Shown here piece after piece: positions 35,223 to 63,662 of a DNA stretch of 63,662 bases. This DNA comes from Clostridia bacterium (GTDB taxonomy: Bacteria > Bacillota > Clostridia > Christensenellales > Aristaeellaceae), in contig JAFXCE010000032.1 in assembly GCA_017521565.1 (NCBI GenBank), positions 1 through 63,662 on the forward strand, in the 5' to 3' direction. The number at the start of each line of letters is the position of its first letter. The first letter of the stretch is position 1. The notes beneath the pieces were generated by a model. It was not told the origin of the DNA, searched no databases, and saw only the letters and a program-made list of their open reading frames with translations. A program made the translations under genes and the position numbers.

Positions 35223-35233
35223 CGTCTCGCCCC

Positions 35234-37371: not shown

Positions 37372-37401
37372 TCGTGTGTTCCTCCACTTCGGGTGATGGG
37401 A

Positions 37402-38334
37402 TTATGGCAGCAGGAAGCTCGACGCAGGCAGGATCTTCAGCGCCGCGTAATACAGCTTCTGCTTTGCCGGAAGCGCCGAAAAATCCACGCCAGCCGTCAT
37501 GGCAGAAACCATGTTCCGGCTTAGCCTGCATGCCGCACGCAGCCTGCCGCAGTCCGCGCGCAGCGTACGCACATAGATGTCAATATGCGCCCGAAACAGC
37601 GCCGTTTCAAGGCCGTGTTTGGCAATAAACCGGCCGATTCCCTCCAGCATTGCTGTGCTGCGCTGGTAGCGGTCTGTCCGTGCGCGGGTCATGGCGGAAT
37701 CTCCGCCAAATTCATACACATAGATGGTTTCGCTGCTCATGCGCCATGCACGGGCAGCCATAAAAGCATCAAGATTGAACAGCACATCCTCGCCAACCTT
37801 CACGCCGAGCGGCGCAAGCACGCCATGGCCGCGGATGATGCTTGTGCGATAGAGGCGCGCACACATGCTGTTGAGCGCACTGTCACCGCGAATCAGGCTT
37901 TCAAGCACAACCTGAAGCGCACCATCTGCACAGACATGCTGCTCGACGCGCCCCCCTTCATCGCGAAAGCGCATCTCATAGGCACCGCAGACGATATCCA
38001 CGCTGTCAGCCGTCATGGAGAGCAGATGCTCAAGCGCATGCGGCAGCAGCCAGTCATCCGCATCGACAAAGAACAGCCAACTGCCCTTCGCTGCGCGAAT
38101 TCCCGCGTTGCGCGCGCTCGACACGCCTCCATTCTCCTGATGAATCACGCGCATGCGCGGTTCATCCTTTGCAATCCGCTCAAGGACGGCAAGCGTATCG
38201 TCTTTTGATCCATCGTCTACCGTGATCAATTCCCAATCTGCGATTGTCTGCGCCTGAATGCTTTCCACCGTACAGGCAAGCGTACTTCCATTCTGGTAGC
38301 AAGGCATGATGATCGATATCATTGGACTATGCAT
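37402..38334 (-). CDS. Family 2 glycosyltransferase
   Basis: Typical GT-A N terminus: ISIIMPCYQNGSTLACTVES, LITVDDGSKDDTLAVLE, NGGVSSARNAGIRAAKG and the metal site FFVDADDWLLPHALE. It shares with its neighbours the mid-chain VGEDVLFNLDAFMA, so the four family-2 enzymes of this unit look like paralogues. The start at 38334 has GGAGATG upstream and overlaps the previous gene by eight bases; a second ATG four codons on is possible. Length 310 is normal. Confidence 0.92.
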   Translation of the reverse strand: MHSPMISIIMPCYQNGSTLACTVESIQAQTIADWELITVDDGSKDDTLAVLERIAKDEPRMRVIHQENGGVSSARNAGIRAAKGSWLFFVDADDWLLPHALEHLLSMTADSVDIVCGAYEMRFRDEGGRVEQHVCADGALQVVLESLIRGDSALNSMCARLYRTSIIRGHGVLAPLGVKVGEDVLFNLDAFMAARAWRMSSETIYVYEFGGDSAMTRARTDRYQRSTAMLEGIGRFIAKHGLETALFRAHIDIYVRTLRADCGRLRAACRLSRNMVSAMTAGVDFSALPAKQKLYYAALKILPASSFLLP

Positions 38335-39352
38335 CCGGCATCTCCTTCCTCGCTCGCAGATAGAACGCAGCCTCTCTCGCCTTGCGGCGGATCACCTGCA
38401 CAGGATAGATCGCAGGGTAAACAATCGGATACAGGCCGCGCTTCACAATACAGGCAAGCAGCCATGCAGCAGCCGTCATGCGCGATGTATCCAGACGGTC
38501 CACCACCACAAGCGGCACAGCCTTTTTCCGAAAACCGCCCATAACGCCCTGTACCCCGCCATCTTTATACAAGCGCAGGGCGACACTGTCAAGGTAGGCG
38601 CCGTAATACGCCTCCATGGCTTTTCGCTTCAGAAGCACCTCGCGCATGGCGCGAAGCCATGGCAGATGTTTGTCAAACTCCGAGGCGGTCTGGCTCTGCG
38701 TAGCGGAAGCCGCATGCATGCGATACAGATACGTGGCCTTGTTGACATAGGCAATCCCGCGTCCGCAAAGCACGGCTTCCAGATTAAACAGCGCATCCTC
38801 CGCGATGCGGACACTGCGATCAAGCCGCAGACCTTCGCGCTCAATCAGCGCCCGACGATGCAGTTTGTTGCACATGATGTTGAGCACGCAGTCGCCCTCG
38901 ATCAGACGGAGCGCAGCCGCGCGCTTTTTGGCCTCTCCCTTGAGATCCATCCAGCGTGTCTCGGGAATCACAATTTCCTCCGAACCCGCATCCGTAAACG
39001 TCTTATGCGCACAGACGACCATATCCACTCCAGCCTCCGCCGCAGACAGCATCGTCTCGAGCATATCCGGCACAATCAAATCGTCGCTGTCCACAAACGT
39101 CACCCATTCGCCGCAGCTGTGATCAAGCCCCAGATTGCGCGCAGCGGAAACACCGCTGTTCTTCTGGCTGAGCACGCGCACGCGTGCGTCCTGCTCAGCT
39201 ATGCGCTGCGCAATCGCCAGCGTCCGATCTGTCGATCCGTCGTCGACGAGAATCACCTCGAAATCCGTCATCGTCTGCGCGAGCACGGACGCCATACAGG
39301 CTTCCAGATACGTTGCACTGTTATAGCACGGAATGATGATGCTGACCCTCAT
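38327..39352 (-). CDS. Family 2 glycosyltransferase
   Basis: The 341-residue enzyme begins MRVSIIIPCYNSATYLEACM, with VILVDDGSTDRTLAIAQ, NSGVSAARNLGLDHS and the metal site FVDSDDLIVPDML. It shares IAEDALFNLEAVLCG with its neighbours. A hydrophobic segment near the C terminus (WLLACIVKRGLYPIVYPAIYP) may bring it to the membrane, where lipid-linked acceptors lie. The ATG follows GGGAGG, and ATGA overlaps the upstream gene by four bases. Confidence 0.92.
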   Translation of the reverse strand: MRVSIIIPCYNSATYLEACMASVLAQTMTDFEVILVDDGSTDRTLAIAQRIAEQDARVRVLSQKNSGVSAARNLGLDHSCGEWVTFVDSDDLIVPDMLETMLSAAEAGVDMVVCAHKTFTDAGSEEIVIPETRWMDLKGEAKKRAAALRLIEGDCVLNIMCNKLHRRALIEREGLRLDRSVRIAEDALFNLEAVLCGRGIAYVNKATYLYRMHAASATQSQTASEFDKHLPWLRAMREVLLKRKAMEAYYGAYLDSVALRLYKDGGVQGVMGGFRKKAVPLVVVDRLDTSRMTAAAWLLACIVKRGLYPIVYPAIYPVQVIRRKAREAAFYLRARKEMPDA

Positions 39353-40392
39353 ACCTGAGCCTCCCGCCCCTGCACAAGCGCGGCAGCGCCCTTCACATTG
39401 CCGCGCAGCCAGCGCAGCGCGAAGAGGCGCGCACGTACCTGTGTGCGGATTCCCTTATGCGTTTTCAGCGTGTACATCAAAAGCGGCATCGGCGAAAGCA
39501 GCGCCCGCAGCAGGCCGCGCATGGTAGAATTCTTGCCGTATTCCTCCATGGCACGATATACGTCCTCGCTCTTCGGGTCAAACCGGATACCCTTGGTGAT
39601 CAGCTTATCATAACAGAGCACCGGCAGAACATTTCGAATCTCCTCAAAACAACCGCAGGCCTTCGCATATTCCGTCAGCCGGACAGAGAGCGTCATCAGC
39701 CGCCACGCAAGACGCGGCTTGGCAAGTCCCATGAGCGAATCACCGCGCTGAACATAGTATACATACGGCTTTGAAAGCGCTGCGATCTTCTTCGTGTGCA
39801 GCAGGTACATCGCGGAAAAGAGCGTATCCTCCGCAAAAACCTCGTTATTAGGCGCATAGCGCAGGCCGTTTTCTTCGATCACACTGCGGCGATAGAGCTT
39901 GCTCCACGCCTCCTGACCATGCCGATAGGGCATCCAGTAGCGATAGAAATAATTGGCAAGACCAAGCGCCTGCAGATCGATCGTCTCATCGGTCATATCC
40001 AGATATGCGCCCTTCTGCACGCCATCCACAACAAGCTGATAATTGAAAAGCACCTGCTCCGCGCCGGTTTCCTCCGCGGCGCGAACGGCATCCTCCAGCA
40101 GTGTCGGCGCGATATAGTCATCCGAATCGACAAATGCGATATACTCACCCTTCGCAACATCGAGCCCCGCGTTGCGCGCAGAAGACAACCCCCCGTTTTC
40201 CTTATGCACCTGCCGGATACGGGCGTCCTTGTCCGCATAGGCCTGCATGATCGCCGGGCAACCATCCTTTGTGCCGTCGTTGACCAGAATCAGTTCAAAA
40301 TCCTCAAATGTCTGCGCAAGAATGCTGTCGATGCAGCGCGCAAGATACTGTTCCACCTGATATACCGGCACAATCACACTCACTCGACACAT
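39349..40392 (-). CDS. Family 2 glycosyltransferase, first gene of the unit
   Basis: The 347-residue enzyme begins MCRVSVIVPVYQVEQYLARC, with LILVNDGTKDGCPAIMQ (DGT where the others have DGS), NGGLSSARNAGLDVAKG and the metal site FVDSDDYIAPTLLE. VFAEDTLFSAMYLLHTKK replaces the GEDxLFN pattern of its neighbours. I chose the ATG at 40392, after GGGGG; eleven more codons are open upstream. It is the first gene behind the promoter at 40434-40463 and leads the glycan unit that runs to 34032. Confidence 0.92.
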   Translation of the reverse strand: MCRVSVIVPVYQVEQYLARCIDSILAQTFEDFELILVNDGTKDGCPAIMQAYADKDARIRQVHKENGGLSSARNAGLDVAKGEYIAFVDSDDYIAPTLLEDAVRAAEETGAEQVLFNYQLVVDGVQKGAYLDMTDETIDLQALGLANYFYRYWMPYRHGQEAWSKLYRRSVIEENGLRYAPNNEVFAEDTLFSAMYLLHTKKIAALSKPYVYYVQRGDSLMGLAKPRLAWRLMTLSVRLTEYAKACGCFEEIRNVLPVLCYDKLITKGIRFDPKSEDVYRAMEEYGKNSTMRGLLRALLSPMPLLMYTLKTHKGIRTQVRARLFALRWLRGNVKGAAALVQGREAQV

Positions 40393-40433
40393 CGCAAACA
40401 CCCCCATTTCGACATACATAATCATACAGATTG

Positions 40434-47858: not shown

Positions 47859-49181
47859 TTAATCATTCGGATTGTTAGGCTCGATCAGATTGTTCTGTTC
47901 GTCCAGATACTTCTGCATCAGCGCATCAATGGACGCGTAAGCAGCAATTCTCTCATTCGTCAGTTCATGCTCACGGCTGCAAACGGAACGGTTGACATTG
48001 CCCTCGATGGTATAGAGCTTGCCGTCCTCTACCTTCTCAACAAGACCTACATGCTTGAACTTGCCGGTTTCAACATTGACAAAGAATACAATGTCGCCCG
48101 TCTGTGGAACATACGCATCCAGATCCGTTCTGCATGCTCCAACTTCCTGCATTTCCTCGACAAGATCTGATACGCTGGAATCGGTCGGATAGCTGCCCGC
48201 TGGAATCTTCGCGTAATTGGCGCAGAACGCAATGAACATCGCACACCACTCGCCGTAAGCCGCGCCATACCACGCTCCATAGCGAGTATAATAGCTCTTC
48301 TTACCGTTCCTGTCGACCGTGAAATCCTTTTTGCTCTCCTTATAACCGATCTGGCTCTTGGCAATGGCAATGATATCCTCACCCCAGATGCCGGAGAGTT
48401 CGACATCCTTAACAGATTCCTCCCAATCCTCAACGGTCTCGTCTTCACGCTCTGCGCAGTAAAAAAGCAAAGACCCTTTCGCCACAGCTCCTTCTGCGTC
48501 CGTTACCTGCACCAACACCTCGGTATCGTCCCAGGAACGCGGCATGCAGCTGATCGTTAGAGACTTCTTTTTTGTCGTTACAGGTTCTACGCGTTTCACA
48601 TCTCCGTGGACAGTCACCGTATATGGCGCAGAACCGCCGCTGATTGCGACATCAATCTCCATTTTCTTCTCACCAACAACGGCATACGCCTCGTCAGTGT
48701 CGATAGAAACATGCAAAGGGTCCGTCTTTGGCTTCTTGGACGACTGTTTCTTGCTCTTATCCGTTTTGTTCTGCGCAGCCTCTTTTTGGCTCGTTGCTTC
48801 GGCTGGTTCCTTGCCCGATTCCTTCTCCGGTTTCTTCTCCGGCTCCGGTTCCTTCTCCGGCTCCGGTTCCTTCTCCGGCTCCGGTTCCTTCTCCGGCTCC
48901 GGCTTCTTCTCCGGCTCCGGTTCCTTCTCCGGCTCCGGTTTCTTCTCCGGCTCCGGCTTCTTCTCCGGCTCCGGTTTCTTCTCCGGCTCCGGTTTCTTCT
49001 CCGGCTCCGGTTTCTTCTCCGATTCCGGCTCTGGCTTGTTCTCGGGTTCCTCCGCAGACATTACCTCATCCTGATCATGTGTCTCAAGCTCTTCCACAAT
49101 TCCCCTTGCAGGCAGCACAGAAAATGCCATAACAAACACAAGCAGCATGGTAATGAGCCGCTTTACCTTGTTCTTCGTCAT
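47859..49181 (-). CDS. Secreted CHAP-domain protein with Lys-Pro-Glu repeat stalk
   Basis: The 440-residue protein has a signal peptide ([27 protein letters not shown]), quoted here only to mark residues 1-27 with its hydrophobic [15 protein letters not shown] core. A highly charged stalk of about a dozen [12 protein letters not shown] hexapeptides covers about 45-125. A Lys-rich linker and an Ig/PKD-like domain (about 155-245) follow. The CHAP domain (about 270-410) has the cysteine in [18 protein letters not shown], the histidine in [14 protein letters not shown] and TIEGNVN. CHAP enzymes cut peptidoglycan peptides as amidases or endopeptidases. The stalk would span or bind the wall. Confidence 0.9.
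48821..49050. repeat. Tandem 18-bp repeat coding for KPEPEK units
   Basis: About eleven copies of an 18-bp unit (ttctccggctccggcttc and variants) on the plus strand encode the Lys/Glu-Pro-Glu stalk of the CHAP protein. The third base pattern varies only between gtt and gct forms, so copies are nearly identical and prone to slippage. Confidence 0.92.
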
Positions 49182-49674: not shown

Positions 49675-49708
49675 AAAACAGCCGGACGCAGCAGCTTGCG
49701 TCCGGCTG
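49675..49708 (-). terminator. Terminator of the second glycan operon
   Basis: A perfect 12-bp stem (CAGCCGGACGCA / TGCGTCCGGCTG) with a six-base loop, followed leftward by TTTTG. It lies 116 bases past the flippase stop. Confidence 0.8.
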
Positions 49709-49823: not shown

Positions 49824-51380
49824 TCATGCTTTCCTAAATCGCCTTAACAAAGAGAGCCTTCCTCCTATGATTCTATCCATAAACTGCAAGGCCTGTGCAT
49901 ACTGCTGGGTCCTGCCAAACAGCAGGTAAAACAGCATGCACGGAACTGTAACCGAAATCAGCATGCACAGCATCAGCTTCAGCCACAATCCACAATGGAT
50001 CTCCGCACAGACCGCGCCAGACACGACCGCAGCCATCAATGCCGCTCCGGCATATTTCAGCAAACTGAAGCAGAACCCCTTCATTCGGCTCCGCCCGAAG
50101 AATAGCCGAAACAGATTATATACAACCCACGGTATCTCGACAAACGCTAACGCGGCAACCGTAGAAAGAATCACACCCAATATTCCCCAGCTGCGTACCC
50201 ACCAAAGATTCAGTCCCAGATTGGCAAATGCTGCAACCATCGGGCGAAAACGATCCTCATGCCACAGCCCCGCGGAGTCCTTATAGACATTAAGCAGCTT
50301 ATTCAAAGCAAACACGTAGAAATACACAGCAAAGCAGATTACCTCTGCCGCCCCAAGCATCAATTCTCTGCCAACCCAAATCTCCATAAACGGTTGATAC
50401 ATGGTCAGAAAACAGCAAGAACCCATCCCGACTGCCCACATGTAGATAAATGTAAACTTGTCCAGATCCTGAAAGTTCTTCTCCTGTGTTTCTGTAATAA
50501 AGCTATTGCCCAATCCCGCACGTATGGATGCCATCAGGATTTCAATGACAGCAACAATCGATGACAGTATAAAATAATAGTTTTGATAGATTGCCAGCAT
50601 CGAGAGTCCCAAGAAGGCTGAAATCACAATCGTATCCGATGAGCTGAGCACTACGTATCCCAGTTTTCCGGTAAACAGATCTCTGATTTTTCCGTTAATC
50701 TGCTTCACAACCGACTTTGGAAGCTCGCCTTGTGGACGGTACTGCGGATACTTCTGCCTAGCAACAGCAGCGGTCAGCACGTTATTGAGCATCGTGGTCA
50801 TCAAGAGTACAATCACATACAGGTAGTAGTTTTTAACCCAAAGTATGACTGCAAGCTGGAGGGCGTACTGCGCCGCCTGTGTGATAATCAGCACTGTATT
50901 GATTATATCCGCACGCTGATATGCATGCAGAATACAGTTTCTGTAAGCAAACAACCAGTATGACAACACCGTTGCGCCCAGATTCAGCCAATACAGTATA
51001 TAAACGCTTAGCCCTGCAGGTATTTCTCCTGAAATCAGATTAGGAATCATCGGTGTCAGTGCAAAACCGACAACGCCAATAATCAATCCTATGATCCTGT
51101 AATACTTTCTGTACAGCTTCATCAGCGCACAGATCGTCACTGTATCATCCTCAGCGATGGGCTTGTACATACTGAACACCATCGCCGCACCCACACCCAA
51201 TTCGGCCAGATTCAGCACATGCAGCACTGAAGAAAACAGGCTGTTTAGCCCCAGATACTGAACACCCATGAAATGAATCATCGCCGTACGCACACAAAAA
51301 GGTGCAGCCATCTGGAATATTCGCTGTATCAGCCCAACCCTGATGCCATTCATTGCATTTTTTGTCCGCGCTATCTTCAT
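49824..51380 (-). CDS. Polysaccharide flippase (MOP/Wzx-like)
   Basis: The 518-residue protein has about fourteen helices. The start NGIRVGLIQRIFQMAAPFCVRTAMIHFMGVQYLGLNSLFSSVL (in parts), followed by NLAELGVGAAMVFSMY, is typical of Wzx-type repeat-unit flippases of the PST family. It would turn the lipid-linked glycan unit to the outer face. It is the last gene of a five-gene unit with the polymerase 23 bp upstream. Confidence 0.88.
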   Translation of the reverse strand: MKIARTKNAMNGIRVGLIQRIFQMAAPFCVRTAMIHFMGVQYLGLNSLFSSVLHVLNLAELGVGAAMVFSMYKPIAEDDTVTICALMKLYRKYYRIIGLIIGVVGFALTPMIPNLISGEIPAGLSVYILYWLNLGATVLSYWLFAYRNCILHAYQRADIINTVLIITQAAQYALQLAVILWVKNYYLYVIVLLMTTMLNNVLTAAVARQKYPQYRPQGELPKSVVKQINGKIRDLFTGKLGYVVLSSSDTIVISAFLGLSMLAIYQNYYFILSSIVAVIEILMASIRAGLGNSFITETQEKNFQDLDKFTFIYMWAVGMGSCCFLTMYQPFMEIWVGRELMLGAAEVICFAVYFYVFALNKLLNVYKDSAGLWHEDRFRPMVAAFANLGLNLWWVRSWGILGVILSTVAALAFVEIPWVVYNLFRLFFGRSRMKGFCFSLLKYAGAALMAAVVSGAVCAEIHCGLWLKLMLCMLISVTVPCMLFYLLFGRTQQYAQALQFMDRIIGGRLSLLRRFRKA

Positions 51381-53705: not shown

Positions 53706-54905
53706 CTATTTCATCATAAGATCAATATACTTTTTCAGTTCCTCCGCATTTCCCTTAGGTTGTTTTTCCAGGTATTCTGTAAGGCTTTTTCGAAGTGCTC
53801 CATCACACATCATATGCGCAATGCCATCGCACAGAGCCTCAGGCGTCATATCAACAATCCAACCACTCTTTCCATGCTCAAGAGAATCTCGGACAGTGGT
53901 ATAATTCGTAGCCACAATAGGCCGGCAGAACACCTTAGCTTCATCCAAAACCATAGATCTGCCCTCAACTCGGGAAGGCTGAACAAGAATATCACATTCT
54001 CTGATGTATGGATAAGGATTCTTTTTAGAGCCAAGTAATTTAAAGCACTCCGCGGCACCGCTTTCCTCTAACTGTTGCTCAAGCCGCGCACGCTCAGAAC
54101 CATCACCCAGAACAAACCACTGAAATGCTTCGCCTCTCTCCTTTAGCAGGCGTGCTGCCTCGATGGCAATATCCACGCCCTTCTGATGGTTCAATCTGCC
54201 TACAGACAGGATTTTCATTCCTTCCACAGCAGCAAACTCCTTCGGCACGTAAGCTTTACTCTGGTGAATTATACTCTGAGACGAGGTAATGTTTTCAAGA
54301 ACATAGACCTTATTTTCCAACTGCGGAAACTCTCTTACAATACAGCTGCGGCAATTCTCCGAAATCGTTACCACTGCGTCACATAATCCAAAATAGCTGC
54401 GATCAAACACTGAATCGTATTTCTGTTTCTGGTATTCACTATGTACCCACAAAACCTTCTTTTGACTAAATACCTTGTCCATCAGCCAGTAATTGGGCGG
54501 CCCATCCATATAGGAGATGGCAAAATCATATTTTTCTTTCCACTTCGGAATAAAGGGACGCCAACTCTGCCATAGCTTTTGCTCTGTGTTCAGCCCTTTA
54601 GGAAACAGATCCAGCTTTTTACGCAGAACCCAACAAATCTCACCCAGCAGTGCTCGTATGGAAAAAAAACTGCAAATCAGTCTGAACGACATCCGTCCAC
54701 CTAACCACCTGAGTTCAGGAACCGAAATGAGGCGCACATTGTCTGGCAACTCCCTCATGAATTCACCCACAGGATCCATCACAAGCAGATGAATCTCATA
54801 ATCCGCTGCATATTCCGACACAGATAATTCCTGCAGAAAAGACAACAAACTCTTCTGAGCACCGCCGATTCTCATATTATTGATTGCAATCAATACCTTA
54901 CGCAT
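53706..54905 (-). CDS. Family 4 glycosyltransferase
   Basis: The 399-residue GT-B enzyme has an N-terminal acceptor domain (VLIAINNMRIGGAQKSLLSF, then VLWVHSEYQKQKYDS and VVTISENCRSCIV) and a C-terminal donor domain (ILSVGRLNHQKGVDIAIEAA, GSERARLEQQLEE, then QPSRVEGRSMVLDEAKVF, the E-x7-E motif). It is clearly a paralogue of the next gene upstream, sharing SVGRL.xQKG and SR.EG.S.VLDEAK. The ATG at 54905 has GGAG upstream and overlaps the neighbour by eight bases. Confidence 0.93.
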   Translation of the reverse strand: MRKVLIAINNMRIGGAQKSLLSFLQELSVSEYAADYEIHLLVMDPVGEFMRELPDNVRLISVPELRWLGGRMSFRLICSFFSIRALLGEICWVLRKKLDLFPKGLNTEQKLWQSWRPFIPKWKEKYDFAISYMDGPPNYWLMDKVFSQKKVLWVHSEYQKQKYDSVFDRSYFGLCDAVVTISENCRSCIVREFPQLENKVYVLENITSSQSIIHQSKAYVPKEFAAVEGMKILSVGRLNHQKGVDIAIEAARLLKERGEAFQWFVLGDGSERARLEQQLEESGAAECFKLLGSKKNPYPYIRECDILVQPSRVEGRSMVLDEAKVFCRPIVATNYTTVRDSLEHGKSGWIVDMTPEALCDGIAHMMCDGALRKSLTEYLEKQPKGNAEELKKYIDLMMK

Positions 54906-56076
54906 TGCTTTCTCCATCAAATAGACTCATATACTTCTCTATTTCGTGCTGATTGCCGTATTCGTGTGTAGAAAGATAGCTGCTAATCCTTCCATACAAA
55001 AACTGATCACCCAGTAAGCGCATAACGCCCTCTGCTACGCCTTCAGCAGACATCGGAACGATCAACCCTTCATTCCCATCCACGATTTGATCTCTAACCG
55101 TAGGATAAGCCGTTGCCACGATTGCCTTGCCCAGGATTTTTGCCTCATCCAGCACCACCGACTTTCCCTCAAAACGCGACGGCTGAACAAACACACTGCA
55201 ATTACGGATGTACGGGTATGGGTTGCTCCGTGTGCCCAGAAGCACAAAATACTCCTCAGCACCCGCATCCCGAATCTGCCGTTCCAGATCGCTGCGAAGC
55301 TCACCCTCGCCAATCACGAACCAGCGGAAGCAAATTCCTTGTTTTCGCAGCAAGACAGCAGCCTGGATTGCCATGTCAAAACCCTTCTGTTTTGCAAGCC
55401 GCCCAACGGACAATATATTTATCGTGCAATCGCCAAATTCCATCGGTTCAAACTGCATTGCCTGCGCTCTGACCATGGATGAGGATATAATGTTCTGAAC
55501 ATAATGTACACGCTCTCGGAACTCTGGAAACTCATGACGCAGAATTTCCGCGCATTCATCCGAAACCGACACGATCGCATCCATGTCCGCAAGGTAAGGA
55601 AATTCATCCTCACGAGAATATCCAGCTGCCCGATAATCATTGTGAACCCACACCAGCTTCCTGTCTGAAGAAACCTTATCACGAACATAAAACATAATTT
55701 CAGAACCGACATAGGCCACTGCGACATCGTAATGCCCATCGAGACTGTCAATCGCTCGCTTATAAAACATTTTCCAGCGAAACGAGCGCTGCTCTTTACG
55801 AGTTCGTTTAACCAGCTTGGCACAACATGTTCCAACCAGCTTCCTCAGTGAGAGTCCGGAAAACAGCTGCAGCGGCGCATACAGCCTGCGAAGCTGCTCG
55901 GGAGTCTCAAGAAGCTGAACCCATGCAGGAATTTGCTGCCTGAATCCACCACGATTCTGAAACAGAAGTACATCCACCTGATACCGGTTTGCCGGTAATT
56001 CATTGAGTAAATTGATAAGACTTCTTTCTGCTCCGCCATAGCTCAGAGAGTGAATTACAAACAGCAGTTTTTTCAT
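54898..56076 (-). CDS. Family 4 glycosyltransferase, first gene of the unit
   Basis: The 392-residue GT-B enzyme starts LLFVIHSLSYGGAERSLINL, with KLVWVHNDYRAAGYS, IVSVSDECAEILR, ILSVGRLAKQKGFDMAIQAA and the E-x7-E motif in QPSRFEGKSVVLDEAKIL. It may compose the inner part of the repeat unit with its downstream paralogue. Its ATG follows GAGGAG. I see no clear promoter; a group of hairpins separates it from the giant surface-protein gene upstream. Confidence 0.93.
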   Translation of the reverse strand: MKKLLFVIHSLSYGGAERSLINLLNELPANRYQVDVLLFQNRGGFRQQIPAWVQLLETPEQLRRLYAPLQLFSGLSLRKLVGTCCAKLVKRTRKEQRSFRWKMFYKRAIDSLDGHYDVAVAYVGSEIMFYVRDKVSSDRKLVWVHNDYRAAGYSREDEFPYLADMDAIVSVSDECAEILRHEFPEFRERVHYVQNIISSSMVRAQAMQFEPMEFGDCTINILSVGRLAKQKGFDMAIQAAVLLRKQGICFRWFVIGEGELRSDLERQIRDAGAEEYFVLLGTRSNPYPYIRNCSVFVQPSRFEGKSVVLDEAKILGKAIVATAYPTVRDQIVDGNEGLIVPMSAEGVAEGVMRLLGDQFLYGRISSYLSTHEYGNQHEIEKYMSLFDGESNA

Positions 56077-56125
56077 TCAGATTTCTCCTCAAGTATTCAA
56101 ATGTAACCCATTTAGGCCGGACGGC

Positions 56126-56211
56126 ATTTCAAAAGAATCCTTTATAGAATTCCTTTGAAATACCGCCCATTCCACATCGTAGAATGGGCGGCTTGCCTGC
56201 TCAACGCAGGC
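56126..56211 (-). terminator. Three consecutive hairpins after the giant surface-protein gene
   Basis: In leftward order: GCCTGC/GCAGGC with a five-base loop (56195-56211), a perfect 10-bp stem CCGCCCATTC/GAATGGGCGG (56163-56191), and a 13-bp A/T-rich stem with one mismatch around ATTTCAAA (56126-56161). The middle one is the most likely terminator, but no long T-run follows. Together they fill most of the gap to the first glycan gene. Confidence 0.6.
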
Positions 56212-56219
56212 GTCTTGGA

Positions 56220-59200
56220 TTAGTCGATGACCATATGGCCTTCTGTATCAAAGGTGTACATGCCCGCAGTGAACGGATAACCGTTCATCTTTGAGACCCA
56301 ACGCGTCTGGCTGACGATAACCGCACCGCCGGAGCTGACGCAGTAGTAGTACTCGCCTACCTTCACAAGACCAGCGTTATCAATTCTTCTGCCCTCGTTG
56401 TAGTAGTAGTACACGCCGCCCTCGTTTACAACTGCGGCTTCCATCATGATTCTGCCGTCGACATCGAAACGATACGTGCCCGCAGGCAGCTTGCCATGCA
56501 TGTTGTTGCTGATCCAGCCCGTCTCATTCATCTTCAGCTTACCGCCGCTTCCTGCGTAATAGTAGCTTCCGTCGATCTCAACCAGACCGGCTGCCGTTCT
56601 CATGCCGTCCACGTAGTAGTAGCCTTCAAGAATGCCCGTGAAGATCTGCAGCGTTCCGTCTTCTCCGAAGCAGTACACGCCAGCAGGTTTGAGACCGTTC
56701 GTCTTGCTCGCAGTCACATTCACAGTGGTATTTACCGCCACCTTGGCATCAGCGCCTACATAGTAGTAAGCGCCATTGTACTCAACCAGACCAGCGTTTG
56801 CTGTACGCATGCCGCTCTTGTAGTAGTACAGAACTCCATCCTCATTGACAATATCAGTCGTCATGATGATGCGGCCCATGTCGTCAAAGCGATACATGCC
56901 CGCGGCGAACGGATAACCGTTCACCTTCGACATCCAACGCGTCTCACTGACAATGACCTTGCCGCCAGAGCTGACGCAGTAATAGTACTCGCCCACCTTC
57001 ACAAGGCCAGCATTCTCTACCCTTCTGCCCTCATTGTAGTAGTAGTACACACCGTCTTCATTCACAACCTCTTCGGTCATGATGATCTTTCCGTCAGCAG
57101 CAAAACGATACATGCCAGCAGTGAACGGATAATTGTTCACCTTCGACATCCAGCGCGTCTGATCGACGATGACCATACCGCCAGAACTGACACAGTAATA
57201 GTCCTCACCCACCTTCACAAGGCCGGCATTGTCCACTCTTCTGCCTTCGTTATAGTAGTAGTAGACGCCGTTCTCATTCACAACTTCAGCTTCCATCATG
57301 ATCTTGCCATCCGCAGCAAAGCGGTAGGTGCCCGCCGGGAACGGCAAGCCATTCATGTTGGAGATCCAGCCCACTCTATTGACATGAGCGTTATAGCTGG
57401 AACTAAAGTAGTAGTAGTCGCCGTCAATGCAGTACAGACCGGTATGCTGATCCAAAGTATCCACAACATAGTAGAGCTTATCTTCAAACCAGTACAGACC
57501 GTCCTCCGCCTCACCGATCAGCGCGCCATTTTCAGCGAACTCATACCACGTTCTGAAAGTGGCATGCGCAGGTCTGACAGGCTTTACGCCGGTCTTGGCA
57601 TAGTACTCCTCAAAGAAGTACTGCTCACCGTCGATGGTCTTCCAGCCTTGCGCATAGTACCACGGACCATAGAAGTACCGCAGTCCGATTTCGTCCTCGT
57701 GCCAGAAGCCCTTCACCAGACGACCGTTGTCCATTTCATAGGTGACTGCAACACCATTGATGGTTTCGCGATGTGTGCCATCAACACCAACGCCGGTGCT
57801 CCAGTTGAACAGATACCAATCGTCGCCGATGCTCTGCCAGCCCTTGACGAGTTCGCCGTTGCGGGCAAAGTAGGTATTCTCGTTCTTCACGAACAGGCCG
57901 CTGTACTTCGTCTGGCCGACATTGATACCCTTCTCACCAAAGTCGTAGTAGTAACCATCGACCAATTCAATGCCATACAGACGCTTACCCTCAACATAGT
58001 AGGCAAAACCGCCATCCATGCTGAACCAACCATCCTTCAGCGCATTCTTAAGAACGAATTCATCCTTAATGGTGGTGTAAGTATCCTTGAAGTAACCGCC
58101 AGCATCAGAACTCATCGCCTCATTACGGTAGGGATACAGTCCGAAGACCGCCTGGTTTTCAGGCTTCTGCGCGAAGGAGTACAGACCGCTTGCGCGCATA
58201 TAGATCTGGTAGCCAACTTCACCGCCGCATACCGCCTCGATAACAGGCTCCTCGTCGGTCAGGACACCGTCCTTCGGCGTCAGCTTGATGCCATTGATCA
58301 GGCACAGGGGATTCGCCGTAGCCGGATCGATAGCCTGAGAGACGCGAATCCAATTCAGCGTCAGGGTCAGGGTATTGGTGGTTTCATCAAACTTGATGCC
58401 GCCGCCTTCAGAGTTCTCACTCAGTTTGAAGTAATCGTTGACGACCTTCAGTTCGCTGTAATCCACATCAAAACGATCATCGAAGTCAACCGTCGCCTTT
58501 ACCCATGTGAGATCACTGATACGCTGAGCCAACTGCAGCAGGAAGGTCCACGCAGATGCACCTTCCAGGTCAGAGCCAGGCAGCATGTAAATCAGATCAT
58601 CGAGACGTTCCGGAATCGGGATCGCTGTCATGTCCATCGCAAAGGTGTAGTTAACCTCCATCTTCTGCGCAGGATCAATGACGTTATAGATGTTCGTAGT
58701 ATCCTCTTCAAGCGTAGCATTCGTCACCTGACGATTCCAGGCCAGCATACGATCGCCGCCGGAGGCCTGAGTAAAGTCAAAGTACTTGTCGCCCTGCTCA
58801 AAGAGCATCACAGTAATAGACGCAGTCTTGCTCGAATTCGCCTTCAGGCTTGCCTTAACGGTCGTTGTCGTCACTGTTGTATTGGGATTCGTCGCAAAGA
58901 ACATGCCCTGCATCTCACCCGCATCAGTATTGTACTCAAAGACCAGATCGGAAGAGGTAATCGCGATATCCTTGCCTGCGAAACTCGCTACCAGAGGCAG
59001 CTCAACGCTGGAACCATACACCACGTCCACCTTATCCTTGGTGAAGTACAGCTGATCGGGGTTCGTCATGGTCATGGACTTCGAGCCGACAACGATGGGT
59101 TCTCCGCCCTCCTCTGCAGCAGGCTGCATCAGATAGACAGTCACATCGCCCAGACCCTTGCCCACAAAGACGCCTTCCTCCGTAATAGAAGCATAGCCTT

Positions 59201-62200
59201 CGTCGCTCACAGCCCAGTAAGTGCCTTCGGGCAGAGCCACGGTATTGCCGCTCGGGCTGATACCGCTCGCAGTCATCTGCACAGGCGTACCAACGGTGGC
59301 GTAATCATACGCAGACTCAATCAGCGCATGATCAAACGCAGTAGAGCTGGGAGCGGTGGAGAACACCAGCAAAGAAGTGGAAACAGAACGGGGATAACCA
59401 TCGGAAGGACGGTTCATGATCGTCAGTTCAGTATCTCCGGGCTGACGTGCCACAAAGGTAGTAGAACCGCCGCCGTCCAGGTTGATGGCGTTCACACAGC
59501 CGGCTTCCTTCATGATGTAACCGATTTCCGCCAGACTGCCGCCCGCAGAGAAAGGCCTCTGACGTCCATCCAGACACATGATAACTACACGGCCGGTCGC
59601 CGTGATACCCACGGAAGTACGCGGAGCATCATTGGCTGCTGCACTTCCGACAACTTCTCCGTCCTTAACGACAAAGCTGCCGAAACCGCCGACCGCTTCC
59701 TTAATCTGATCCTTCATCTCGGCATACTCACCAGGGCCACCCAGGTAAGCCTCGCCATTCTTGAGAATCGCAAAGAAGCCGACGTCACTGGTGTTGGCAT
59801 GCCATTCCACACCATCCATCACCAGCAGGTTGCCGGGGTTGCCGTTGGACATATCAAAACCGCCGGCGTTGGTAGAAACGATAACCTCAAAGTTTTCGAT
59901 ATGGTTGGGATTCGTCGGATCGCCATAGATATTCTGTGCATTCTGCGCAGAATCGAGAACGCGGGACATCGCCCAACGCGGCTTGTCCGGCGTGCCAGGC
60001 TCACGCTCATTGTAGTTTACCCACATATCGACGTCTTCACGGCTCACGTCCGCAGTTGCAACGTAGTAAACAACCTGATCTCCGTTGGCATTGGTCGCAT
60101 AGCTGATCTTCTGGCTGATACCGGGGGCCAGATTCTTGGTTTCGGTATCGAAAACCGTGAAGTAGGGGTTAACCAGGTCTTCTACGTAGTCGCCTGCCAC
60201 CTTACAGATTTCATCCGCAAAAGCATAGCAAGTCGCCTTACGCAGTTCGGTCAGATCCGCGCCGCTGTGGCTGAAGTTACGGGTGCCTTCCAGCGTAGAG
60301 AGCAGCTTATTGCTGGTATACGCATTGTACACCGCATTGCGCAGCTCCTGACGGGTACTGACACCGTCCAGACGATTGTTGATGAAGTACTCAAGACGAC
60401 CAGTGAATGTCTGACGTTCTTCCAGATAGAACTCGGTCATGATCTTGGACAGATCGCCCACTTTATAGCTGTTCATGAGCTGATCCATGAAGTAGAAGCC
60501 TTCCATGTCCTGATACATGTCCGTGATGCCAAAGGAACCTTCGGAGCCTGCAATTTCAACAGAGAACAGCAGATTCTCGCGAATCTTTGCAATCTTCTCC
60601 TCAGTGTTCAGATCCATCAGGCTGAAACGATCCGCATACTGATCAACGGTATCCACAAGGTCCACAAGGTCGCCCGCCCAGCCGGAAATATCCGCATGGT
60701 TCTGGCTGCCCTTATTGTGATAGGTCATATCCATCAGACCAAAGAGATGACCGCTACCGAAGCTTACCTGGCCCTTCCAGCTGCCGTAGTACTGCTCATT
60801 GTACGGAAGCTCATAGTTCTTCAGCTTCTTGAGACCAGAGACATTCAGCATAGCCGCCTGTTCAGCAGTATAGCCAAACTGCTCCGGATTGGTCTTGATG
60901 GCATCCTCAAGCTGGTAGACATAGTCACGGAATTTGGTATTTTCCTCACCAGCCATGATGCCCCAGGAACCGGAGGTATAGTTGGAAACGCCAGTACGGA
61001 TGTAGTTGAGCGTCAGAGCCAGCGGATCCGTACCAGGATTCTCGCGGGTATAGTTGCTCGCCATCATTTCCAGCGCGCCAACGTTCAGCAGGAACAGTTC
61101 GGCAGTTGCGTTGGATACCACCTCAAGCTTCGCATATTCCTCGTAGTTCTCGCTGCGCTGACCACAGAACAGACACCTCTGATGCTCATTCCAGCCCACA
61201 TTGGTGTAGGTCGGAGCCTTAGCATCCATGTCCATCCACTCATGCTGCAGCGCGGGAATGGGATCCGCGTCATAGTTACAATAGTTACAATACGACGCGC
61301 CCACATGGTGACCATCATAGCCACAGGTTGCCGGGATCTCCATATCGGCAACAAGCCACTCATGATCAGCCAGCGGGATGACCTCCTGTGCAACCAGCAC
61401 TTCACCGCACCAACCGCAATGAGAGCCTTCGGTCAAGCCGGTTTCCACACAGGTCGCAGCCATGCCGGGATCCGTCACAGCAAGATGCTCCTGCTGCTCC
61501 TCGTACCGCTCATAGCAGCGATAGCACAAAGACGTCTCGTTCTGGCAGGGATATCTCTCATTCCAATGATGTCCCAGCGCAGACAGCGGTTCGCTGTCCT
61601 GCAGGCCGGTATTACACACGGAGCAGATGATGGAAGCCGTCCAACCGCCCTCGGTACAGGTCGGATCTTTCGCTTCCTTAATCACCTTAGGCGTATGCTT
61701 CGGCTGCGTCACCACAAATTCTTCAGTCTCGCAAAGCTGACACTTCTGCCAGTAGCCGCCATCAGAATTACAGCTATGCAGCTCTTCAGATGTCTGCTTC
61801 CAGTCATGTCCATCCGGATCGACAGGCGTAACCATGGTCTTGGTCGCACCGCAGATTGCAGCATTCTCAGCCTCACCCGCAGTCGCTTCCGTCAGCGCCA
61901 TGTTATCGATGCCGATATATTCGTCATCAATAGCAGCCTTAACATTGGTACAGATGAACACGCTCTCGCCCTCAGCCTGGCAGGTAGCCGGCGTCAGCAC
62001 TTCATGTTCAAACCATGCATGTGCTTCAGGATTGACAGGGATACTCTCGTACTTCTTGAAAGCACCGGATTCGTCCTTGCTGATGCAGTTTTCATTCGTA
62101 CAGGTGTAGGTCTTCTCACCCATCGCCTGACAGGTAGACGCCAGCGTCTCAACGCCTTCATCCCAGATGTGATTATCGGAGTACACCTCGGGATCAAACT

Positions 62201-63662
62201 TTTCCGCTTCTGTACGGGTCTGCGTGCAGCCATTCACAACAGCTTCGCTCTGCGTAGCATCGGTTACAGGCAGGTTGACGCAATGGAACTCGCGTACACC
62301 ATCTTCCGCACAGGTGGGTTCCTTGGTTACAGTACCCACATCCCACGTATGGTTATCGGAATCGATGGGCAGAACCACGGTCTTCAGAACGGTTTCAGTA
62401 GCCTTGCCCTCCTCATCGGCAAAGTTCAGCCCACAGACACCGCAGTGCCAATAGGCAACATTGCCCTCCGCCTGACAGGTCGCCGCAACACCCGGCACAA
62501 AGGTCAGATCATGACCAACTGCCTTGAGCGCCTCAATGTCGCTTTCGACAATCAGCGTCTGAATAGACACATCCAGATCTGCATAAACCGTATCAATAGT
62601 CACAATCACGTTTTCTTCGCAGCCATTGCCGCAGACAAACGTGCGCGTACCATTTTCCGTACAGGTCGGCGCAATCGCCAGGGACGCATCCTCAGCATAT
62701 GCATGACCGGTAGCCGGGATCACCGTTTCCTTCGTCTGCACCGCAAAGGCGGTATTCTCAAAGGCCTCGGATGTCCACAGGCCGCTGCCGGCAGCTTCGC
62801 ATTCCGCTTCCGTCACGACTGCATACGTCGCATCAACGGTTTCGGTCTCGAAATGATCGGCATCGTTCTCACACACACGGGTCGCGGTGACCGTCATGGT
62901 ACCCTTCTCGGTATCCTCGGTCCACTCATAGCTCGCTTCGCCGTAGGTATGGTCCGCAAGAGGCAGGATCCAGCTGTTCTCAGCAATTTCATGCTGACCC
63001 GCCTCATCGGAGTAGTAGTTCTGACAGGCAGAACAGTACCAGTAAGCAGTATTACCCTGTTCGATACAGGTCGATGCCTTGGCCGCAGTGCCAGTCATGG
63101 TTCCGATATGCTCACACGTAAGCATCGGGATCACGGTGTTCTCGTTCCGCTTATCATGGCAGACGGTACATTCCTCATGCCTGATACCGGATTCCAGAAC
63201 AGTGGCAGCCTTATCAATTACCCACTGGTAATCATGGCCGTTCTCATCTACATAGTTGTCTTTATAGGTATCGCCGCAGGCATAACAGGTATGCGTGGTA
63301 TAGCCCTGCTCGGTACAGGTCGGCTCAGTCACGGTATCCGTATAGTCATGGCCCAGCGCGTCGACCGTGATGGTCTCACGGCTCACTTCGCCATTACACA
63401 CGGAGCAGTACACGACGCTGTCGTAGCTGCCAGTTTCAGTGCAGGTCGGAGCCTTTTCGTTCTCCTTCACAGCCGCTGCTTCGGTGTGGCCCAGCGCGTC
63501 GACCGTGGTGGTCTCGCGGCTCACTTCGACATTACACACGGAGCAGTACACAACGGTGTCGTAGCTGCCTTCCTCGGTACAGGTCGCATCGACGTTATTT
63601 TCGATGACGGCCTCCTTCTCGGTGTGGCCCAGCGCGTCGACCGTGATGGTCTCGCGGCTCAC
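56220..63662 (-). CDS. Giant surface phosphodiester glycosidase with CxxC and wall-binding repeats (5' end outside window)
   Basis: The visible 2,480 residues lack the start and signal peptide, which lie beyond the right edge. Residues 1 to about 846 are repeats of a CxxC-type module (for example TCTEEGSYDTVVYCSVCN, ALGHxx), at first with an exact 46-residue period. About 847-1240 is a helical domain I do not recognise (GHLFGLMDMTYHNKGSQNH, ADISGWAGDLVDLVD). About 1250-1435 is a phosphodiester glycosidase (NAGPA) domain: STNAGGFDMSNGNPGNL, DAPRTSVGITATGRVVIMC with CLDGRQ, NAINLDGGGSTTF and NRPSDGYPRSVS. An Ig-like domain (about 1450-1530) and a beta-rich domain follow. About 1840-2480 are aromatic repeats (GVYYYYNEGRR, AGLVKVGEYYYC) like cell-wall/glucan-binding modules. 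It would be secreted, wall-bound, and cleave sugar-phosphodiester bonds. Confidence 0.88.
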   Translation of the reverse strand: MSRETITVDALGHTEKEAVIENNVDATCTEEGSYDTVVYCSVCNVEVSRETTTVDALGHTEAAAVKENEKAPTCTETGSYDSVVYCSVCNGEVSRETITVDALGHDYTDTVTEPTCTEQGYTTHTCYACGDTYKDNYVDENGHDYQWVIDKAATVLESGIRHEECTVCHDKRNENTVIPMLTCEHIGTMTGTAAKASTCIEQGNTAYWYCSACQNYYSDEAGQHEIAENSWILPLADHTYGEASYEWTEDTEKGTMTVTATRVCENDADHFETETVDATYAVVTEAECEAAGSGLWTSEAFENTAFAVQTKETVIPATGHAYAEDASLAIAPTCTENGTRTFVCGNGCEENVIVTIDTVYADLDVSIQTLIVESDIEALKAVGHDLTFVPGVAATCQAEGNVAYWHCGVCGLNFADEEGKATETVLKTVVLPIDSDNHTWDVGTVTKEPTCAEDGVREFHCVNLPVTDATQSEAVVNGCTQTRTEAEKFDPEVYSDNHIWDEGVETLASTCQAMGEKTYTCTNENCISKDESGAFKKYESIPVNPEAHAWFEHEVLTPATCQAEGESVFICTNVKAAIDDEYIGIDNMALTEATAGEAENAAICGATKTMVTPVDPDGHDWKQTSEELHSCNSDGGYWQKCQLCETEEFVVTQPKHTPKVIKEAKDPTCTEGGWTASIICSVCNTGLQDSEPLSALGHHWNERYPCQNETSLCYRCYERYEEQQEHLAVTDPGMAATCVETGLTEGSHCGWCGEVLVAQEVIPLADHEWLVADMEIPATCGYDGHHVGASYCNYCNYDADPIPALQHEWMDMDAKAPTYTNVGWNEHQRCLFCGQRSENYEEYAKLEVVSNATAELFLLNVGALEMMASNYTRENPGTDPLALTLNYIRTGVSNYTSGSWGIMAGEENTKFRDYVYQLEDAIKTNPEQFGYTAEQAAMLNVSGLKKLKNYELPYNEQYYGSWKGQVSFGSGHLFGLMDMTYHNKGSQNHADISGWAGDLVDLVDTVDQYADRFSLMDLNTEEKIAKIRENLLFSVEIAGSEGSFGITDMYQDMEGFYFMDQLMNSYKVGDLSKIMTEFYLEERQTFTGRLEYFINNRLDGVSTRQELRNAVYNAYTSNKLLSTLEGTRNFSHSGADLTELRKATCYAFADEICKVAGDYVEDLVNPYFTVFDTETKNLAPGISQKISYATNANGDQVVYYVATADVSREDVDMWVNYNEREPGTPDKPRWAMSRVLDSAQNAQNIYGDPTNPNHIENFEVIVSTNAGGFDMSNGNPGNLLVMDGVEWHANTSDVGFFAILKNGEAYLGGPGEYAEMKDQIKEAVGGFGSFVVKDGEVVGSAAANDAPRTSVGITATGRVVIMCLDGRQRPFSAGGSLAEIGYIMKEAGCVNAINLDGGGSTTFVARQPGDTELTIMNRPSDGYPRSVSTSLLVFSTAPSSTAFDHALIESAYDYATVGTPVQMTASGISPSGNTVALPEGTYWAVSDEGYASITEEGVFVGKGLGDVTVYLMQPAAEEGGEPIVVGSKSMTMTNPDQLYFTKDKVDVVYGSSVELPLVASFAGKDIAITSSDLVFEYNTDAGEMQGMFFATNPNTTVTTTTVKASLKANSSKTASITVMLFEQGDKYFDFTQASGGDRMLAWNRQVTNATLEEDTTNIYNVIDPAQKMEVNYTFAMDMTAIPIPERLDDLIYMLPGSDLEGASAWTFLLQLAQRISDLTWVKATVDFDDRFDVDYSELKVVNDYFKLSENSEGGGIKFDETTNTLTLTLNWIRVSQAIDPATANPLCLINGIKLTPKDGVLTDEEPVIEAVCGGEVGYQIYMRASGLYSFAQKPENQAVFGLYPYRNEAMSSDAGGYFKDTYTTIKDEFVLKNALKDGWFSMDGGFAYYVEGKRLYGIELVDGYYYDFGEKGINVGQTKYSGLFVKNENTYFARNGELVKGWQSIGDDWYLFNWSTGVGVDGTHRETINGVAVTYEMDNGRLVKGFWHEDEIGLRYFYGPWYYAQGWKTIDGEQYFFEEYYAKTGVKPVRPAHATFRTWYEFAENGALIGEAEDGLYWFEDKLYYVVDTLDQHTGLYCIDGDYYYFSSSYNAHVNRVGWISNMNGLPFPAGTYRFAADGKIMMEAEVVNENGVYYYYNEGRRVDNAGLVKVGEDYYCVSSGGMVIVDQTRWMSKVNNYPFTAGMYRFAADGKIIMTEEVVNEDGVYYYYNEGRRVENAGLVKVGEYYYCVSSGGKVIVSETRWMSKVNGYPFAAGMYRFDDMGRIIMTTDIVNEDGVLYYYKSGMRTANAGLVEYNGAYYYVGADAKVAVNTTVNVTASKTNGLKPAGVYCFGEDGTLQIFTGILEGYYYVDGMRTAAGLVEIDGSYYYAGSGGKLKMNETGWISNNMHGKLPAGTYRFDVDGRIMMEAAVVNEGGVYYYYNEGRRIDNAGLVKVGEYYYCVSSGGAVIVSQTRWVSKMNGYPFTAGMYTFDTEGHMVID
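56240..57440. repeat. 216-bp direct repeats coding for 72-residue wall-binding units
   Basis: The phrase gaacggata/gaacggca recurs at 56907, 57123 and 57339, exactly 216 bp apart, with a further copy at 56271 after two diverged units. Copies are highly similar in DNA (for example the tagtagtagtac tract encoding Tyr runs), so recombination between them could change unit number. Confidence 0.85.
63381..63662. repeat. 138-bp direct repeats coding for 46-residue CxxC units
   Basis: The unit starting gctcac occurs at 63381, 63519 and 63657, exactly 138 bp apart, and continues past the window edge. The first two copies differ at only some positions. Each encodes one VSRET-VDALGH-TCTE-YCSVCN module of the giant protein. 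Confidence 0.88.

What the first reader, a model, noticed from the sequence alone, without database searches (positions are those of the whole stretch)
56220..63662. Giant wall-bound phosphodiester glycosidase next to a Wzx/Wzy glycan operon
The visible chain joins CxxC modules, an unrecognised helical domain, a NAGPA-type domain with NLDGGGS and NRPSDG motifs, and a long wall-binding repeat tail. NAGPA enzymes cut sugar-phosphodiester bonds. The gene lies directly upstream of an operon that builds and exports a polysaccharide. A secreted enzyme that trims phosphodiester-linked sugars on the cell's own (or a rival's) glycan would be a new kind of envelope remodelling system. The link is inference from domains and position.
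Basis: partly seen in the sequence, partly recalled or inferred. Interest (0 to 1): 0.8.

Follow-up and report, generated by a model that had tools for sequence, protein, structure and literature searches.

The report
Giant wall enzyme in sugar-coat locus
A very large secreted bacterial protein carries two enzyme domains that probably cut phosphate-linked sugars and lipid-linked sugar chains; the domain pair is already described in print, but its repeated place inside surface-polysaccharide gene clusters suggests that it may work on the cell's own sugar coat.

Summary
Window 56220-63662 (-) is the 3' part (2480 codons) of a giant gene cut by the contig edge; a same-genus relative (G009) has a complete 5519-aa version. 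The chain is CxxC modules, helical domain, NAGPA (PF09992), beta-rich part, wall-binding repeats. It lies 143 bp upstream, same strand, of GT4-GT4-GT2-Wzy-Wzx-like genes. The 'unrecognised helical domain' is very probably a prok-TelC Lipocone domain: profiles link it (hhalign 99.1%, 1.2e-18) to Rv2525c/peptidoglycan-binding proteins of the kind Burroughs et al. (eLife 2025) call TelC. That paper already describes large Bacillota proteins with a TelC+NAGPA core, read as conflict systems. What I add is context: the six giant NAGPA domains found form one clade (98/93), and 4 of 5 testable giants have at least two glycan-cluster genes within 10 kb by one probe set, against 0 of 20 other NAGPA regions. 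Glycan clusters do not require the giant (2 of 29 same-genus genomes). Best reading: an accessory enzyme that frees or trims the cell's own glycan, TelC-like part at undecaprenyl-diphosphate chains, NAGPA at sugar-1-phosphate diesters such as the LCP-made wall link. Function is inference; no fold could be predicted and no activity is shown.

The parts
56220..63662 (-). giant secreted wall-binding protein, 3' part of the gene (2480 codons; 5' end off the contig)
   Evidence: open frame to contig end; 5519-aa complete relative in G009:C66:44365-60924
61149..63662 (-). CxxC-rich modules, aa 1-838 (no Pfam family)
   Evidence: 12 CxxC pairs; no Pfam match over its cut-off (aa 1-451 scanned alone, whole chain)
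60168..61121 (-). helical domain, aa 848-1165: TelC-like (Lipocone) domain
   Evidence: hhalign with Rv2525c/PG-binding plasmid proteins 99.1%, 1.2e-18; 8-row alignment with invariant His972, Trp995, Asp998, Asp1052 (numbering checked)
59361..59888 (-). NAGPA (phosphodiester glycosidase) domain PF09992, aa 1259-1434
   Evidence: 2e-34; PDB 3ohg 4.8e-20 and solved NAGPA chains such as 6pki 1.5e-05
59463..59483 (-). NLDGGGS motif
   Evidence: aligned with 3ohg
59397..59414 (-). NRPSDG motif
57963..59354 (-). beta-rich (Ig-like?, by eye) region, aa 1437-1900, no Pfam match
56223..57962 (-). degenerate choline-binding-type wall-binding repeats
   Evidence: PF19127 3.1e-05, below cut-off; tandem unit 216 bp
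56077..56219 (-). gap with two strong RNA hairpins, no clear U-run
   Evidence: z -7.49
54898..56076 (-). GT4 glycosyltransferase
   Evidence: PF00534
53706..54920 (-). GT4 glycosyltransferase
   Evidence: PF00534
52626..53684 (-). GT2 glycosyltransferase
   Evidence: PF00535
51404..52642 (-). Wzy-like polymerase/ligase
   Evidence: PF04932, 32.9 bits against 31.7
49824..51380 (-). Wzx-like flippase
   Evidence: NCBIfam WZX_like 8.6e-08, below cut-off; no Pfam match
49679..49708 (-). terminator-like hairpin after the operon
   Evidence: one of 9 found in the scan, 8.2 expected by chance; 12-13 pairs, the longest stem of the nine
47859..49181 (-). CHAP-domain protein with a signal-like start, like the N-terminal part of the G009 giant
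   Evidence: PF05257; 46% identity, 1.4e-90, match running slightly past the stop codon

Best explanation
It is a giant, wall-bound member of the published TelC+NAGPA protein class, encoded in the cell's own glycan locus. Most likely it acts on that glycan after export: the TelC-like domain would cut polymer (or precursor) off undecaprenyl diphosphate, and the NAGPA domain would hydrolyse sugar-1-phosphate diesters. A chemically apt target is the alpha-GlcNAc-1-phosphate-6-O-MurNAc bond by which LCP enzymes fix such glycans to the wall, the same bond type as the GlcNAc-1-P-6-mannose that mammalian NAGPA cuts. The repeats would hold the enzyme in the wall and the long CxxC part would act as spacer. 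Shown: architecture, domain families (NAGPA firmly, TelC-like by profile chain), locus context. Inferred: secretion of the window copy (its start is missing), every reaction, the substrate and the benefit (release, turnover or length control of the surface glycan).
For: NAGPA 2e-34. Helical domain tied to Rv2525c/PG-binding proteins by hhalign 1.2e-18; their PF08924 and PF01471 domains were checked in three, and the Lipocone paper names such fusions as TelC. Giant NAGPA domains group together, 6 of 6, support 98/93 among 36. Within 10 kb, 4 of 5 giants have at least 2 glycan markers against 0 of 20 other NAGPA regions (Fisher p 4e-4; without window and G009, whose genes were the probes, 2 of 3 against 0 of 20, p 0.012). 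Pfam confirms glycan genes at each of the five giants: window GT4, GT4, GT2, Wzy_C; G009 Bac_transf and four GT4; G029 LCP PF03816, CpsB PF19567, Wzz PF02706, Bac_transf, Wzy_C, GT4 and GT2; G633 Bac_transf, GT2, GT4 and LicD PF04991; G603 GT2 domains on both flanking genes. LicD proteins move phosphate-linked groups onto glycans (recalled), which would fit a phosphodiester in that glycan. Bond chemistry: LCP link in PMC8807736 passages, NAGPA substrate in PMC12024695 passages. TelC cleaves lipid II between undecaprenol and diphosphate (PMC12419801 passages; PMC5555719 passages).
Against: No activity, no glycan structure and no expression data. The TelC-like domain gave no sequence match to the solved TelC and could not be folded. 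Two of the six giants (G029, G603) show no TelC-like domain by eye, so it is not essential to the clade. LCP was verified only in the G029 cluster. The genes I call Wzy, Wzx and Wzz in G009, and Wzx in G029, have no Pfam or NCBIfam match and are labelled by eye or by phmmer among themselves. The controls were not scanned with Pfam. Only 2 of 29 same-genus genomes have the TelC-NAGPA gene although 29 of 29 have Bac_transf. Strong hairpins separate giant and operon. The published authors read the class as a conflict system.
Confidence: 0.42

Rival explanations
1. Conflict system, as published: a wall-displayed antibacterial weapon whose TelC-like and NAGPA domains attack lipid II and phosphodiester-linked wall polymers of rivals; the variable repeats are binding parts in an arms race.
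For: Burroughs et al. interpret the TelC+NAGPA class so; TelC itself is a lipid II phosphatase toxin; a small lipoprotein-like gene lies directly upstream of the giant in G633 and G705 (27% identity, 5.5e-16) and could be an immunity protein; patchy distribution.
Against: Location in the cell's own glycan clusters; no relative of that lipoprotein found in the fetched G009 stretch or the window (upstream of the window gene is off the contig); G029 has a faint lipoprotein relative but no TelC-like domain seen; no LXG or other delivery part in the Pfam scans of the giants' parts.
Confidence: 0.28
2. Passenger of a variable surface locus: the giant is mainly an adhesin or receptor whose enzymes act on wall teichoic acid or host/diet glycans; glycan clusters and giant surface genes share hot spots for gene turnover without a functional link.
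For: Giant is rare in the genus while Bac_transf is universal; a second giant of at least 2827 aa lies next to the G633 one; enzyme make-up varies (G603 has NAGPA plus a calcineurin-like domain).
Against: One NAGPA clade shares the location; the 20 other NAGPA regions do not.
Confidence: 0.22
3. The NAGPA or TelC-like domain is catalytically dead and only binds sugar phosphates (a lectin-like tether for the glycan).
For: Glu1054 stands where 5 of the 7 other aligned rows have Asp in the D-rich stretch; no assay.
Against: NAGPA motifs DGRQ, DGGGS and PSDG are kept in all six giants (five, where G029 reads NGDGGGS instead of NLDGGGS; G603 read by eye), and His972, Asp998 and Asp1052 in all eight TelC-like rows.
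Confidence: 0.08

Closest known systems
TelC+NAGPA large proteins of spore-forming Bacillota (Burroughs, Nicastro, Aravind, eLife 2025, PMC12419801; passages and section 19 read)
   Same: TelC-like domain plus NAGPA, extracellular cell-wall-binding repeats, in some an NlpC/P60-superfamily peptidase (CHAP, which I recall as belonging there, is in the G009 giant).
   Different: Here the genes lie in glycan clusters, which the passages I read do not mention for this class; very long CxxC part; in the window a CHAP domain sits on a separate gene.
PGBD-Rv2525c-TelC proteins on plasmids of Lactiplantibacillus, Streptomyces and Curtobacterium (e.g. NZ_CP017411.1)
   Same: Same helical domain (hhalign 1.2e-18).
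   Different: No NAGPA match; 765-803 aa proteins with PF01471 and PF08924.
DUF2233 protein 3OHG and mammalian NAGPA / uncovering enzyme (6PKI and others)
   Same: NAGPA family and motifs.
   Different: No TelC-like or wall-binding parts (recalled); the mammalian enzyme acts on lysosomal enzymes (PMC12024695 passages).
TelC of Streptococcus intermedius (5UKH)
   Same: Presumed Lipocone family and attack on polyprenyl-linked head groups (inferred).
   Different: Not detected by sequence from this domain; T7SS-delivered LXG toxin (PMC5555719 abstract start and passages).
VanZ Lipocones in polysaccharide operons (PMC12419801 section 19)
   Same: Published proposal that a Lipocone may release mature glycan chains from the lipid carrier.
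   Different: Another Lipocone clade; no NAGPA mentioned there.

Membership tests
NAGPA / phosphodiester glycosidase (PF09992) | profile score above curated cut-off | tested here: met
   119.7 bits against 25
NAGPA / phosphodiester glycosidase (PF09992) | conserved motifs shared with solved members | tested here: met
   PRTSVG, DGR, NLDGGGSTT aligned with 3ohg; catalytic roles not mapped
NAGPA / phosphodiester glycosidase (PF09992) | hydrolysis of sugar-1-phosphate diesters | not testable with these tools
   no assay; the structure paper (PMC3675612) is not held
prok-TelC (Lipocone superfamily) | homology to described prok-TelC fusions (PGBD + Rv2525c barrel) | tested here: met
   profile and tblastn chain, PF08924+PF01471 present, hhalign 99.1%; that these are the very proteins the paper means rests on matching its description
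prok-TelC (Lipocone superfamily) | sequence match to solved TelC 5UKH (not strictly defining; the superfamily is described as extremely divergent) | tested here: not met
   not among matches up to E 10
prok-TelC (Lipocone superfamily) | four-helix Lipocone fold with cap | not testable with these tools
   prediction job interrupted, then tool switched off
prok-TelC (Lipocone superfamily) | Asp six positions after the active-site Asp of helix 4; active-site His in helix 2 | tested here: inconclusive
   His972 invariant in 8 of 8; at six after Asp1048 the window has Glu1054, 5 of 8 rows Asp, the others Pro and Val; helix assignment is mine, without a structure
TelC+NAGPA large wall-binding proteins (eLife 2025) | TelC and NAGPA in one secreted chain with wall-binding hairpins | tested here: met
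   signal-like start read by eye only, in G009 and G633; the window copy lacks its start
TelC+NAGPA large wall-binding proteins (eLife 2025) | NlpC/P60-superfamily peptidase (in some) | tested here: inconclusive
   CHAP PF05257 in the G009 giant and on a separate gene in the window; window N-terminus missing
Wzy-dependent glycan cluster | GTs, Wzy, Wzx, initiating transferase | tested here: inconclusive
   window: GTs and Wzy_C, weak Wzx, no initiating transferase among the genes scanned and the upstream side is off the contig; G029: Bac_transf, Wzy_C, Wzz, LCP; G009: Bac_transf and GTs, its Wzy- and Wzx-like genes without family match; G633: Bac_transf and GTs, no Wzy or Wzx identified; G603: GT2 only

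The most novel reading that the evidence does not exclude
The TelC+NAGPA giants are not weapons but dedicated surface-glycan release machines: one wall-bound chain that undoes both attachments of a Wzy-made polymer, the undecaprenyl-diphosphate link (TelC-like) and the LCP-made sugar-1-phosphate link to MurNAc (NAGPA), with CHAP acting on the peptidoglycan. NAGPA would then be an enzyme that reverses LCP ligation, of which I know no named case (recalled).
Probability: 0.2. Interest if true: 0.75.

Novelty: new member of a known kind. Interest (0 to 1): 0.45.

Why it matters
How Gram-positive bacteria shed or shorten polysaccharide already fixed to lipid carrier or wall is, as far as I know (recalled, not searched), poorly understood. 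A NAGPA clade that keeps company with glycan genes gives a testable candidate, and it sets the published 'conflict' reading of TelC+NAGPA proteins against an 'own-envelope' reading that a deletion or an enzyme assay can decide.

Tried and rejected
Finding the missing 5' part: the G009 N-terminus against the own genome gave six places, among them the window's own CHAP gene and a CHAP-like frame at the end of C8. C8 was read and looks like another surface protein without glycan probe hits nearby; the contig-end DNA matches nothing else in the genome. So the window gene's N-terminus is unknown, and the G009 form is only a guide.

G426 and G567 were taken as chance: a 79-position partial match repeated in four 337-aa frames, and a membrane protein. 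PDB tyrosyl-tRNA synthetase, RBL4 and beta-lactamase matches were rejected as chance (partial; the best, RBL4 at 4e-4, has no stretch that passes on its own).

Literature: searches gave no test of a bacterial NAGPA enzyme that I saw in the listings; PMC12599335 was seen in a listing only. PMC11188070 passages note NAGPA fused to calcineurin-like surface proteins; PMC9862828 passages predict NAGPA-like phage depolymerases; PMC4000134 cites DUF2233 in its references only. TelC together with NAGPA as whole words occurs in one held paper. Most subscription papers are not held, so absence from print is not shown.

Limits of the location test: the probes come from the window and G009, and three G009 probes (named Wzy, Wzx, Wzz by me) have no family match; without them G009 still has four markers and G029 three (counted). 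Contigs differ in length (three controls only 7.7-9.8 kb); genomes are related; the 20 controls were chosen by me from the hit lists, not drawn at random, and not Pfam-scanned. G705 (3.5-kb contig) was left out as untestable. G603 has one marker by the probes; Pfam later showed a GT2 domain on its other flank too, which I did not add to the test. The tree used 36 domains found with a profile built from five of the six giants.

Full report
What is there. The window is contig G000:C57 in full, from a 3.08-Mb, 160-contig assembly estimated 85% complete. The minus-strand frame 56220-63662 is open to the contig end, 2480 codons. NAGPA PF09992 matches aa 1259-1434 at 2e-34. The genome holds six NAGPA matches: this giant, three in a row on C20, one each on C1 and C70.

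Relatives. Among 60 related genomes (own included) one other, G009, matches the helical+NAGPA stretch over its full length (70% identity, 1.1e-281). Its gene, G009:C66:44365-60924, is complete: 5519 aa with a signal-like start (by eye), an E/P/T-rich stalk, CHAP (PF05257), an SH3_3 domain (PF08239), a long CxxC part, the helical domain, NAGPA and wall repeats. A profile of the helical domain found two more in 396 genomes of the order, G633 (1635 aa, complete) and G705 (cut by a 3.5-kb contig), besides the window's own and one chance match. A better profile found, in 398 genomes of the phylum, besides the window's own, a 550-aa protein of G226 with peptidoglycan-binding and DUF5675 domains. A NAGPA profile of the giants at E 1e-30 found, in 297 genomes of the order, the window's own, G705, G633 and one further giant, G603, which has NAGPA plus a calcineurin-like phosphoesterase (PF00149) and no TelC-like part that I saw. 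G029 has a 2397-aa NAGPA giant, also without that part by eye.

What the helical domain is. Pfam, NCBIfam and PADLOC do not know it. The G226 domain hits 63 plasmid records by tblastn, 49 of them Lactiplantibacillus; the annotations in the 20 listed rows are glycoside-hydrolase-domain or peptidoglycan-binding protein, or none. The window domain itself hits one Curtobacterium protein annotated alike, at 6e-3 over 83% of the query. Three such proteins (L. plantarum, S. clavifer, Curtobacterium) hold PF08924 (Rv2525c-like) and PF01471. hhalign of the four giant domains against these three gives probability 99.1, E 1.2e-18 over 202 columns. Eight aligned rows keep, in window numbering, Ala868, Leu883, Arg889, Trp900, Gly905, His972, Trp995, Gly997, Asp998 and Asp1052. 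Burroughs et al. 2025 (PMC12419801; I read passages, and section 19) state that TelC domains occur fused to peptidoglycan-binding domains and an Rv2525c-like barrel, and that large Bacillota proteins combine a prok-TelC + NAGPA core with wall-binding hairpins and sometimes NlpC/P60. Both descriptions fit, so I take the domain as TelC-like. A direct match to the solved TelC was not found and the fold could not be tested.

Location. Downstream on the same strand lie GT4, GT4, GT2, Wzy and a flippase-like gene, then a terminator-like hairpin at 49679-49708. In G009 the giant lies after an initiating sugar transferase (PF02397) and three GT4 genes, and before another GT4 and two membrane proteins that I call Wzy- and Wzx-like by eye; these two and an upstream 'Wzz' have no Pfam or NCBIfam match. 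G029 has LCP, CpsB, Wzz, an AAA_31 ATPase, Bac_transf and Wzy_C and GT4 and GT2 genes. G633 has a NusG-like gene, Bac_transf, GT2 and GT4 and a LicD gene. G603 has GT2 domains on both flanking long genes. Counted with one probe set within 10 kb: giants 5, 7, 4, 2, 1 markers; 20 other NAGPA regions 0 or 1 (5 of 20 with one). At least two markers: 4 of 5 against 0 of 20, Fisher p 4e-4; without window and G009, from which the probes were taken, 2 of 3 against 0 of 20, p 0.012. The six giant NAGPA domains form one group, 98/93, in a tree of 36. The converse fails: 29 of 29 same-genus genomes have Bac_transf, 2 of 29 the TelC-NAGPA gene; many of these are incomplete.

How it may work. TelC cleaves lipid II between undecaprenol and diphosphate (PMC12419801 and PMC5555719 passages). 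Precursors of other surface polysaccharides are carried on the same lipid diphosphate (section 19 of PMC12419801, which itself proposes that VanZ Lipocones may release mature chains). LCP enzymes join such glycans to MurNAc O6 through a GlcNAc-1-phosphate diester (PMC8807736 passages). The mammalian NAGPA removes GlcNAc from GlcNAc-1-P-6-mannose (PMC12024695 passages). A wall-bound chain with both domains, coded in the glycan locus, could therefore free the polymer from both anchors. This step is inference. The published rival, a weapon against other bacteria, stays open: a small lipoprotein-like gene directly upstream of the giant in G633 and G705 (5.5e-16) could be an immunity protein or simply a partner.

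Verdict. New here, as far as the passages and searches I read go, is the repeated place in glycan clusters.

Noticed in passing
window 56077-56219 (-) and the stretch after the giant in G009, G029, G633: Strong RNA hairpins without clear U-runs directly after the giant gene in 4 of 4 loci folded (z -7.5, -7.3, -4.8, -4.2); perhaps attenuators or mRNA-end protectors. G603 was not folded.
   Followed up: partly
G633:C23:107010-107552 (+), G705:C19:2444-2992 (-), G029:C86:76528-77073 (-): Small lipoprotein-like or secreted gene (180-182 aa) directly upstream of the giant; G633 and G705 copies related (5.5e-16), G029 copy only faintly (4e-4 by phmmer). No Pfam family.
   Followed up: partly
G009:C66:43553-44209, G633:C23:112609-113310: LGT-family gene (PF01790 tested for G009; G633 copy homologous) next to the giant in both.
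   Followed up: partly
G633:C23:103721-104578 (+): LicD-family gene (PF04991) in the glycan cluster of the G633 giant; such proteins handle phosphate-linked groups (recalled), so this glycan may hold a phosphodiester.
   Followed up: no
window 34032-40425 (-): A second glycan-type cluster: FrhB/FdhB-like, polysaccharide pyruvyl transferase and four GT2 genes.
   Followed up: no
G000:C20:45509-48455 and G009:C109:3893-6857: Three small NAGPA genes in a row in both species, each pairing with its counterpart in the tree, with one GT4-like gene but no other glycan probe hit within 10 kb.
   Followed up: partly
G603:C11:2225-7810 (+): 1861-aa giant with NAGPA and a calcineurin-like phosphoesterase in one chain, between two long genes that each hold a GT2 domain.
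   Followed up: partly
G633:C23:113389-121869 (+): Second giant surface gene (at least 2827 aa, runs off the contig) near the TelC-NAGPA giant; a stretch resembles by eye the middle of the G009 giant.
   Followed up: no
window 56496-63662 (+): Antisense frame open for 2389 codons opposite the giant; most likely a by-product of codon use and repeats.
   Followed up: no
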